Assembly: GCA_003559735.1 (NCBI GenBank)
Contig: PWKN01000189.1
Coordinates: forward strand, 1 to 36,884
Origin: Bacteroidales bacterium
Lineage (GTDB): Bacteria > Bacteroidota > Bacteroidia > Bacteroidales > UBA7960
Direction: 5' to 3'
Length of the DNA stretch: 36,884 nucleotides
Within the stretch, counting starts at the first letter, position 1; every line of letters begins with the position of its first letter. A program made the translations under genes and the position numbers. Positions 27,651-29,599 of the stretch are shown here, one piece after another. The notes under the pieces were generated by a model. The model worked only from the letters and a program-made list of their open reading frames with translations. It made no database searches and was not told the DNA's origin.

Positions 27651-27658
27651 CAAATGTA
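27651..27658 (-). promoter_or_regulatory. -7 element of the gamma-lyase promoter
   Basis: On the - strand TACATTTG matches TAnnTTTG, 26 bases before the ATG at 27625. Only a poor -33 candidate (ATTT) is found 19 bases upstream. The spacer is filled by the palindrome CATGAA-TTTTT-TTCATG, so the promoter may depend on a regulator. Confidence 0.5.
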
Positions 27659-27677
27659 CATGAATTTTTTTCATGCG
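27652..27677 (+). repeat. 26-base direct repeat, copy 1, with internal palindrome
   Basis: Identical over 26 bases to 27790-27815. The core is the palindrome CATGAA-TTTTT-TTCATG at 27659-27675. It adjoins the gamma-lyase -7 element, so a protein bound here would cover the promoter. Confidence 0.85.
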
Positions 27678-27693
27678 AAATTTAACCCGGACG

Positions 27694-27711
27694 CATGATA
27701 AAAAATTCATG
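27694..27711 (-). repeat. Third, inverted and imperfect copy of the palindrome
   Basis: CATGAT-aaaaaa-TTCATG is the same 6-mer pair with one mismatch and a one-base longer spacer, and its flanks (CGCATGA) match the other copies in reverse orientation. It lies between the two identical direct repeats. Confidence 0.5.
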
Positions 27712-27730
27712 TGAAAGCGTAAGCGGTTCC

Positions 27731-27788
27731 TCCTGTACACCAGCATTTTGTAATTTTTTATACAAAATGATGGTGGTTTTTTACAGGA
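27731..27788. repeat. Large nested inverted repeat (hairpin)
   Basis: The innermost arms CATTTTGTA (27744-27752) and TACAAAATG (27761-27769) are perfect over nine bases, extend to 14 of 16 with ACACCAG/ATGGTGG flanks, and outer arms TCCTGTA (27731-27737) and TACAGGA (27782-27788) are again perfect. The whole could fold as one cruciform or RNA hairpin. It sits between palindrome copies 2 and 3 in the divergent gap. Confidence 0.65.
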
Positions 27789-27789
27789 G

Positions 27790-27815
27790 AAATGTACATG
27801 AATTTTTTTCATGCG
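27790..27815 (+). repeat. 26-base direct repeat, copy 3, with internal palindrome
   Basis: Identical to 27652-27677, 138 bases away. The palindrome CATGAA-TTTTT-TTCATG is at 27797-27813. The base before the repeat differs, so this copy lacks the G of the -7 element. It lies 150 bases upstream of the divergent secreted-protein gene. Confidence 0.85.
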
Positions 27816-27963
27816 TCTGTGTGTACGATCCAATAAAAATAGTTCATAAAAAACGCAGCGGCTACTTTTTATTGTGAAAGATGAACAGAGCACTCTTTTA
27901 TGTGCTGGAAATTTCATATATTGCGTTGACAACAATATTGTTCAATCCCAAAAATCATTGCTG

Positions 27964-28836
27964 ATGAAAACAACCAGTGCTATTATTGTTGCAATGGTCA
28001 TTATGTTGACAGGCAACATATTGCTTGCTATGGGAGACAAGTTGATGGCTCCTCCGCCACCAGGTGCCGTTCTTAAAGGAAACGAGCGCGATGGTGCGTC
28101 CTTTAAGATTCCTGCTGCAGGCTTCACAGCATCTTTCCATACACCCATGCAGGTCGGTGAAGCGGTTTCATTTTATGCCAGGGAAGTGGGGCCGATGGAT
28201 GAACTGGTAAGCGGTGAACATTACCGGACTGATATGATGACCGTTGAGATCAAACAACTCGGTGTGTTGAAAGTGTACGACATTCCGGAAAATCCCGGAA
28301 TATCGGTCAAAAGTGTCCGCATGCTTCAGCCTCGCCAATGTATTTCAGAGTATTTCAGGCCTTTCCGCCGTATGGCAGACGAACTGGAACAATACAGCAG
28401 AGACGATTTTAATGAGATCTGCTCGCGCTATGGATACCTTCAATATGCTTATTTCGGACGATCAGATGAGGCCGGTCTTAATCGTGATGAGGTATTGCAC
28501 AGGGAGTACAGACGAGAGCTGGATGCTGCTGCAGGCAAAGGACTGGATGCCGGTGAAATGATGGCAGAAGCTCAACGGTTGATGCAGCAGGGGAAAATGG
28601 ATGAAGCCACCGAACTGTTACATAAAGCTGCCGAATTGCAACAGGAAGCCATGCAAATGGACCTTCAGCGGCTTCAGGAGCCTGTGGCGCAAGAAGAAGT
28701 GGCGGACAATTGGGAAGGGTGGCTCAGGTTTCTAAATGAGTTGGAGGCCATTGCTTTTCCAACCATCGTGGTAATTGATTACCACCCATCCCATTGGCCG
28801 GATGATGAATGGTTGCGTGAAAGTACAGACTGGTGA
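27964..28836 (+). CDS. Exported protein of unknown function (first of a pair)
   Basis: I do not recognise the family. From the ATG at 27964 it has 290 residues with a hydrophobic signal sequence (about 5-24, SAIIVAMVIMLTGNILLA) and no lipobox Cys. The first domain is a compact alpha/beta stretch (FTASFHTPMQVGEAVSFYARE, then MTVEIKQLGVLKVYDIP). A long charged, Met/Gln-rich helical part follows at about 198-240 (EAQRLMQQGKMDEATELLHKAAELQQ), of TPR or coiled-coil character, and a Trp-rich end. A frame open back to 27874 would put 30 polar residues before the signal, so I reject it. The TP-x-V-x-x-x-x-x-Y segment recurs in the next gene, so the two may be distant relatives. The gene follows the repeat-rich region and could share its regulation. 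Confidence 0.72.
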   Translation: MKTTSAIIVAMVIMLTGNILLAMGDKLMAPPPPGAVLKGNERDGASFKIPAAGFTASFHTPMQVGEAVSFYAREVGPMDELVSGEHYRTDMMTVEIKQLGVLKVYDIPENPGISVKSVRMLQPRQCISEYFRPFRRMADELEQYSRDDFNEICSRYGYLQYAYFGRSDEAGLNRDEVLHREYRRELDAAAGKGLDAGEMMAEAQRLMQQGKMDEATELLHKAAELQQEAMQMDLQRLQEPVAQEEVADNWEGWLRFLNELEAIAFPTIVVIDYHPSHWPDDEWLRESTDW

Positions 28837-28912
28837 CCAGGCAGCATTAATTGCTGTAGGCTGCTTTAAGGGAACCAATCATTATTCATTTTAATCAAAC
28901 GGAGGATAGTTT

Positions 28913-29599
28913 ATGTGGCAATTATTTTTTTTATTCTTTATGTTCTTTTTTACAGGGGTGATCAGTGCACAGGTGGCGCATGACCAACTGGTCCCCCTGC
29001 CCGGATTTGCTGAATTTCAACCCGGTCTGACGAGTGAAATGGAAGAGATGCACCAGCAGATGGCAGCCACCAGGGAAAGTGCAACATACCAGGATGGCCA
29101 GCTATTACGCTATGAAGTTGTTGACACTGAAGTTATGGTATATACCACACCGCTGCCCGTTGAAATGGTGAGAGAAAAATACAAAGATTTGTTCATCGAC
29201 CAGATGAGAGCGGATGGCACACCGGAGGAAGCGATCAGCCAGTTTAGCAGGTTTCTTGACACCCAGGTTATTCAGCAGGTTGAAAACGTACCCCTTTTCC
29301 CTGGTGATCCGGATATGATGGAGACCTATTATGAGATGGCGGAAATTGATGTTCCAGCCAGGGTTATCGATTGTATGCGGGAACTATACCCGGACCTGAA
29401 GAATAAAGAAACCAGTACTTTTGTAATTGAGATGAACGAACAACAGTTTCGGCAGGATGACAGCCAAGGTGTGCAAGATCCATTTACCATGGTGGAAGTG
29501 GAGGTGCAGCAACCATCTGTCAACCTTTTTGATTGCTCGTTTTCGGAGCAGACATCCATCATATACCGGGTGTTTACCATGACCGTAAGCATTGAATAG
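28913..29599 (+). CDS. Exported protein of unknown function (second of a pair)
   Basis: A 228-residue protein with a strongly hydrophobic N-terminal signal (LFFLFFMFFFTGVISAQ, probably cleaved after SAQ). The mature part begins with an acidic Met-rich helix (TSEMEEMHQQMAATRE), then an alpha/beta domain (LLRYEVVDTEVMVYTTPLPVEMVREKYKDLFIDQM). It ends in beta strands with two cysteines (DCMRELYPDLK and LFDCSFSEQ). MVYTTPLPVEMVREKYKDLF lines up with SFHTPMQVGEAVSFYAREVG of the preceding protein, which suggests a common domain. No family is recognised. It is 76 bases after its neighbour on the same strand and 95 bases before ribE, so the pair is probably co-transcribed. Confidence 0.72.
   Translation: MWQLFFLFFMFFFTGVISAQVAHDQLVPLPGFAEFQPGLTSEMEEMHQQMAATRESATYQDGQLLRYEVVDTEVMVYTTPLPVEMVREKYKDLFIDQMRADGTPEEAISQFSRFLDTQVIQQVENVPLFPGDPDMMETYYEMAEIDVPARVIDCMRELYPDLKNKETSTFVIEMNEQQFRQDDSQGVQDPFTMVEVEVQQPSVNLFDCSFSEQTSIIYRVFTMTVSIE

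What the first reader, a model, noticed from the sequence alone, without database searches (positions are those of the whole stretch)
27652..27815. Three palindromes and a large nested hairpin upstream of the gamma-lyase
Two identical 26-base repeats (27652-27677, 27790-27815) each hold CATGAA-TTTTT-TTCATG. A third imperfect inverted copy is at 27694-27711. Between them lies a nested inverted repeat with perfect outer and inner arms (27731-27788). Copy 1 fills the spacer of the gamma-lyase promoter. This could be a multi-site operator with looping, or a small transposon-like element that duplicated its edge.
Basis: seen in the sequence. Interest (0 to 1): 0.6.

Follow-up and report, generated by a model that had tools for sequence, protein, structure and literature searches.

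The report
Mobile hairpin element that invades promoters
The repeats next to this gene are one copy of a small folded DNA element that has scattered through the genomes of a genus of Bacteroidales, nearly always landing inside the start signal (promoter) of a gene and replacing part of it, which suggests a selfish element that specialises in promoters.

Summary
Window 27652-27789 is one 138-bp copy of a dispersed, non-coding element: hairpin 1 (A, loop, A') followed by nested hairpin B, then a partial second copy (27790-27823). About 30 sites exist in the same genome, and many more in at least eight relatives of the genus. Both hairpins are supported by covariation (15 pairs changed on both sides against 5.8 in shuffles). 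A's own palindrome is not supported. In 86 of 86 assessable sites in ten genomes the A edge lies directly upstream of a gene transcribed outward from it; the other side is mixed (48 outward, 30 inward). The edge reads TAYATTT(G), the Bacteroidetes -7 promoter box TAnnTTTG. Unoccupied orthologous promoters (yicC, mutS, a deoxynucleoside kinase) show insertion inside the native -7 box, with the element supplying a new one. Downstream genes share no function. No terminal inverted repeats were found, and Y1 and Y2 transposases are absent from the four most populated relatives, so REPIN, IS200/605 and IS91 machinery is not supported. What moves it is unknown. Best reading: a new family of promoter-targeting, non-autonomous mobile hairpin element.

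The parts
27652..27789 (+). One complete 138-bp unit of the dispersed element (AAATGTACATG...ACAGGAG)
   Evidence: BLAST family in own genome and relatives; alignment A1 of 27 units
27652..27677 (+). Arm A: left end of the element; its first bases with the preceding C form the -7 box
   Evidence: Exact repeat; covariation with A'
27678..27691 (+). Loop between A and A' (AAATTTAACCCGGA-like here; AAATTTCACACAGA in most copies)
   Evidence: Alignment A1
27692..27712 (-). Arm A': inverted copy of A, 3' arm of hairpin 1
   Evidence: 13-nt perfect inverted match; helix 1
27730..27789 (+). Hairpin B: outer stem CTCCTGTA/TACAGGAG, inner stem CACCAGCATTTTGTA/TACAAAATGATGGTG; right end of the element
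   Evidence: helices 2 and 3
27790..27823 (+). Partial second unit: arm A again, followed by TCTGTGTG, the loop in flipped orientation
   Evidence: Identity to A; the same flipped loop in L038 and L076
27651..27658 (-). -7 promoter box TACATTTG of the gamma-lyase gene at the element's left edge
   Evidence: Sequence; orthologues G012 and G015 have the same box without the unit; TAnnTTTG consensus from PMC7366714
26423..27625 (-). Gene downstream of the invaded promoter: Cys/Met metabolism PLP enzyme (called gamma-lyase in the finding)
   Evidence: Pfam PF01053, E 8.6e-94

Best explanation
The feature is a copy of a non-coding mobile element of about 138 bp, with a longer form of about 230 bp. 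It folds into a long hairpin (A-loop-A') at one end and a nested hairpin (B) at the other, with no terminal inverted repeats. It inserts in one orientation into the sigma-ABfr type -7 box (TAnnTTTG, read as CAAAnnTA on the other strand), with the junction after the C, i.e. TAnnTTT^G. Its left end then supplies a new -7 box (TAYATTT completed by the native G) and new upstream promoter DNA for the gene. The native -7 remnant is pushed to the far side of the element. Because the right end is followed by AAATRTA, it is itself a target, so new copies insert there and give tandem units. Shown: dispersal, structure conservation, position, orientation, and three sites with unoccupied orthologues. Inferred: that it moves as a folded single strand or RNA with help from a protein encoded elsewhere, and that older copies decay while the ~25 bp next to the gene persist because they serve as its promoter.
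For: Dispersed copies in own genome and in G013, G017, G002, G009, G010, G018, G003, G004 and one in genus g7. Left neighbours are mostly non-orthologous between genomes, as expected of a mobile element. 86/86 assessable sites have the gene outward at the A edge (82 by script, four corrected by eye); the other side is 48 outward, 30 inward (Fisher p 5.5e-12). Unoccupied sites: yicC, G011/G020 TTGC|AAATATAGCACAAATGATTGGCTGAAAAC against G013 TTAC|AAATATACATG...ACAGGAG|AAATATAGCACAATTGACCGGCCGAAAAC; mutS, own contigs C101 and C250 carry the two sides, the right flank AAAAATACAAAAATTT being like the native -7 region seen in most element-free relatives; kinase, G013 right flank AAATATACATTTTCTTTTT against native AAAAATACATTTTCTTTTT in G018 and G002. 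At mutS and the kinase no element-free relative has CAAATRTA at the -7 position, while four of five element-bearing genes do. Covariation of both hairpins. Right ends followed by AAATRTA or a near match.
Against: No transposition was observed and no mobilising enzyme was found. Whether AAATRTA is a target duplication, part of the element, or a shared crossover sequence is unresolved: left and right copies usually agree but differ at mutS, L061, L080, L118, L124 and L158. Some A-only sites (L064/L065, L067/L068) are shared by orthologues in genomes with few copies; I read them as old insertions, but a native promoter type resembling A is possible. Genes were called by longest ORF, genomes are draft MAGs, and no transcription start is known.
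Confidence: 0.8

Rival explanations
1. A regulator-binding operator: the palindrome CATGAA-N5-TTCATG sits between the -33 and -7 boxes of a regulon, and the multiple sites near the lyase allow looping.
For: A has a fixed position against the -7 box at every site. Some A-only sites are conserved between species at orthologous genes (L064/L065, L067/L068).
Against: The interval between CAT and ATG varies by several bases. In G013 and G009 the palindrome is broken (CATTCG, GTTCG) while pairing with A' is kept. A's own halves show no covariation above shuffles, A-A' do. Downstream genes have no common function. The repeated tract extends over 138 bp and includes hairpin B.
Confidence: 0.08
2. A promoter-carrying element that inserts at random and survives only where its outward promoter serves a gene; position reflects selection rather than targeting.
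For: The left end does carry a -7 box, and old copies keep mainly that end. MITEs with outward promoters are known (PMC10969869).
Against: Unoccupied orthologues show that a native -7 box already lay exactly at the junction. Even full, young-looking units have no exception in orientation (30 of 32 by script, the two others being a contig end and a small ferredoxin gene corrected by eye). Selection alone should leave some neutral insertions between convergent genes.
Confidence: 0.12
3. A REPIN or IS200/IS605-type miniature element moved by a Y1 (RAYT/TnpA) transposase.
For: Hairpin ends, inverted doublet A-A', oriented target next to the left end, tandem arrays and decayed singlets, as described for REPINs (PMC3116915).
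Against: Y1 transposases are absent from G013, G002, G009 and G017, the relatives with most copies. The single Y1 in the own genome lies on a contig starting with adapter-like sequence and its flanks show no copy of A.
Confidence: 0.1

Closest known systems
REPINs with RAYT (Pseudomonas, E. coli)
   Same: Small non-coding, intergenic inverted doublets forming hairpins; tandem clusters; decayed singlets
   Different: No Y1/RAYT in the high-copy relatives; second, different hairpin B; insertion in -7 promoter boxes with fixed orientation
Correia elements (Neisseria)
   Same: About 100-200 bp, high copy, upstream of genes, outward promoter at an end
   Different: Correia elements are MITEs with terminal inverted repeats; none here. 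Here the junction lies inside a native -7 box and only one end faces the gene
BrickBuilt and other MITEs of Porphyromonas gingivalis (same order, Bacteroidales)
   Same: Always intergenic, hairpin-rich, with promoter activity
   Different: Those share terminal inverted repeats with IS5-family ISPg elements (PMC4596501); no such ends here, and no promoter-box target was described in the passages read
IS200/IS605-derived palindrome-associated elements
   Same: Subterminal hairpins, oriented insertion next to a short sequence
   Different: Y1 transposase absent where copies are most numerous; the target is a -7 promoter box

Membership tests
REPIN/RAYT system | Inverted doublet of a short palindrome forming a hairpin | tested here: met
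   A-loop-A' helix with 8 pairs changed on both sides
REPIN/RAYT system | A RAYT (Y1) transposase in the genome, flanked by the same REP | tested here: not met
   PF01797 absent in G013, G002, G009, G017; own Y1 not flanked by A
IS200/IS605 miniature element | Y1 transposase source in the genome | tested here: not met
   caveat: draft genomes, 80-98% complete
MITE of a DDE transposon (including Correia, BrickBuilt) | Terminal inverted repeats | tested here: not met
   Left end AAATRTACATGAATT, reverse complement of right end CTCCTGTAAAAAACC: no match
MITE of a DDE transposon (including Correia, BrickBuilt) | Constant-length target-site duplication | tested here: inconclusive
   AAA to AAATRTA on both sides, but left and right differ in several copies
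IS91/Helitron-like (Y2) | Y2 transposase source in the genome | tested here: not met
   PF04986 absent in G013, G002, G009, G017; only partial matches in own, G018, G011
Transcription-factor operator/regulon | Conserved palindrome of fixed spacing | tested here: not met
   Variable spacing; no covariation within A above shuffles
Transcription-factor operator/regulon | Functionally related target genes | tested here: not met
   MutS, M48 peptidase, desaturase, nitrilase, citrate transporter, carboxyltransferase and others
Known structured RNA (Rfam) | Match at gathering score | tested here: not met
   None in the window; long forms hit only chance hairpin families far below cut-off
IS110 (bridge RNA) derivative | IS110 transposase and a bridge RNA whose loops match target and donor | not tested
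   Genome searches exhausted

The most novel reading that the evidence does not exclude
A mobile element whose folded nucleic acid (the conserved long form with TTTGATTAAAnCGGT...GAGCTCGCCA...GGCTCGGTTC) directs an unidentified enzyme to the core promoter box itself, so that it edits promoters in trans across the genome: a promoter-specific, possibly RNA- or hairpin-guided transposition system.
Probability: 0.2. Interest if true: 0.85.

Novelty: new variant of a known kind. Interest (0 to 1): 0.6.

Why it matters
Bacterial mobile elements with outward promoters are known, but a family whose insertion point is the core promoter box of the gene next to it, with no exception among 86 sites, would be unusual. 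It would couple a selfish element to rewiring of housekeeping promoters (MutS, D-alanine ligase-like, shikimate kinase and others) and would explain how its gene-proximal end is kept while the rest decays. It also gives a defined target and structured ends with which to look for the missing enzyme.

Tried and rejected
Plasmids and phages: no match; viral contigs: no match to either core. Y1 and Y2 transposases as partner: rejected for the high-copy relatives. Rfam: nothing real. Hairpin B as intrinsic terminator: the scan found none, so not claimed. dif/Xer-like site: considered because CGCAT...ATG resembles it, rejected for variable spacing. Target-primed reverse transcription with truncated ends: considered for the sharp left and ragged right edges; not decidable from the junctions. 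The Fisher value for -7 boxes used rough hand counts and is not used. The first intra-A count used shifted columns and is replaced.

Full report
WHAT IS THERE. The two 26-base repeats, the inverted third copy and the nested inverted repeat are present as described. The unit is 138 bp, 27652-27789: arm A, a 14-base loop, inverted arm A', a linker (GTGAAAGCGTAAGCGGTTC) and hairpin B. From 27790 arm A starts again and is followed by TCTGTGTG, the loop read in the other direction. The same flipped loop occurs in L038 and L076. The region folds far better than shuffles (z = -7.8).

IT IS DISPERSED. BLAST with 191 bases of the window gives 42 matching stretches in the own genome, which I group into about 30 sites. 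Forms range from whole units through A-loop-A' to A alone. The core pattern occurs 28 times against 1 in the reversed control. Relatives in the same genus carry it too: G013 (30 stretches), G017, G002, G009, G010, G018, G004, G003, with one copy in another genus of the family. Several genomes of the genus have none. Some contigs end inside copies, so counts are lower bounds.

STRUCTURE. In an alignment of 27 units from seven genomes, the two hairpins keep 92.8% standard pairs. Fifteen pairs change on both sides (shuffled mean 5.8, 0 of 500 shuffles reach it; slid controls at most 9). Examples are CATGCG/CGCATG, CATTCG/CGAATG, CATGTG/CACATG. A longer form of about 230 bp carries an extra domain between the A' arm and the linker. 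Its stem also changes in a compensating way (ACGCTT/AAGCGT, ACTCTT/AAGAGT, AATCTT/AAGATT, CATCTGA/TCAGATG; alignment A2, read by eye), and the domain, without recognisable ends, is found in another genus of the family (G066). Rfam has no match.

WHERE IT SITS. The A edge reads CAAATRTA, which on the other strand is TAYATTTG, a form of the -7 box TAnnTTTG of Bacteroidetes (PMC7366714). In ten genomes, 82 of 86 assessable sites have the neighbouring gene transcribed outward from this edge by script. The four exceptions (L041, L135, L183, L194) are outward too when read by eye: a glycosyltransferase-like protein, GcvH, the ribosome recycling factor and a small ferredoxin (names from the sequence, not searched). 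The other side is mixed, 48 outward and 30 inward (p 5.5e-12). In 136 kb of own sequence, CAAATRTA outside the element is upstream of an outward gene in 5 of 6 non-coding cases with a neighbour in the stretch. A sequence-specific target plus loss of insertions in genes would therefore go a long way to explain the pattern. The genes have no shared function.

UNOCCUPIED SITES. One search compares three promoters over the genus. At yicC, G013 has two tandem units between TTAC and AAATATAGCACAATTGACCGGCCGAAAAC, and G011/G020 have C|AAATATAGCACAAATGATTGGCTGAAAAC with nothing in between. At mutS the own contigs C101 and C250 end inside the element and appear to be its two sides: the right flank AAAAATACAAAAATTTAGG...CATAATGTATGTTAAA matches the native promoter of relatives (inference, since the contigs are not joined). 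At the kinase gene, G013 continues after the element with the native ATACATTTTCTTTTT. In mutS and the kinase gene, element-free relatives have mainly CAAAAATA as -7 box and none has CAAATRTA, while four of five element-bearing ones do. So the left end brings its own TAYATTT and the native box ends up at the far side. At the lyase itself, G012 and G015 have CAACAAATGTACACGA without the unit, so the box was there before.

HOW IT PROBABLY WORKS. Inserting always in one orientation, at a short sequence, with hairpins at both ends and no terminal inverted repeats, is what elements moved as folded single strands or through RNA do (general knowledge of IS200/IS605, REPIN and similar systems). Since every right end abuts AAATRTA or a near match, a further unit can insert there, which gives the tandem order seen in the window and elsewhere. 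After insertion only the part next to the gene is useful as promoter, so it is kept while the rest decays. This explains sharp left and ragged right edges and A-only remnants. These steps are inference.

WHAT IS NOT KNOWN. The enzyme. Y1 transposases are absent from the four relatives with most copies, and so are Y2 transposases. Terminal inverted repeats are absent. The left and right AAATRTA usually agree but not always, so a target duplication of 3-7 bases, an element-borne end and a shared crossover core all remain possible. Genomes are drafts of 64-98% completeness.

VERDICT. A real, mobile, structured promoter-associated element: like REPINs and Correia elements in size and habit, but failing their defining tests of RAYT and terminal repeats.

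Noticed in passing
L083:1-17 (own contig C145): The contig starts with CGACGCTCTTCCGATCT, which looks like an Illumina adapter remnant; it carries the only Y1 transposase of the assembly.
   Followed up: no
L031, L035, L053 (ends): A second dispersed repeat, ACGGCCTTGTCCGGTGAGCCAAAAAACAAGCGCAGGTGGCG...GAAGCACCGACCGAAGGGAGGTGC, lies next to several copies.
   Followed up: no
L024, L030, L043: A third dispersed repeat around CTCTTGTAAAAACCTGTTTTCAAAACAAGCATAACGCAGAAACCGG.
   Followed up: no
L186, L070, L120, L183 (G013): In G013 the interior of some copies is replaced by TCTCAAGGTCTTTCACCCGGTCGTCGCTTG followed by an AGGTTTAAAGGTTTAAGGG minisatellite; in L186 the right end of the element is still present beyond it.
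   Followed up: partly
L288 (G066): The long-form domain (TTTGATTAAAGCGGTCAGATGGAGCTCGCCA...TGGCTCGGTTC) occurs in another genus without recognisable element ends; it may be an older structured RNA or a part of the autonomous element.
   Followed up: partly
window 27874-29599: Two ORFs without Pfam match lie between the lyase and riboflavin synthase genes; in several relatives (G017, G020, G011, G015, G005, G006, G008, G012) the two genes are direct neighbours.
   Followed up: no
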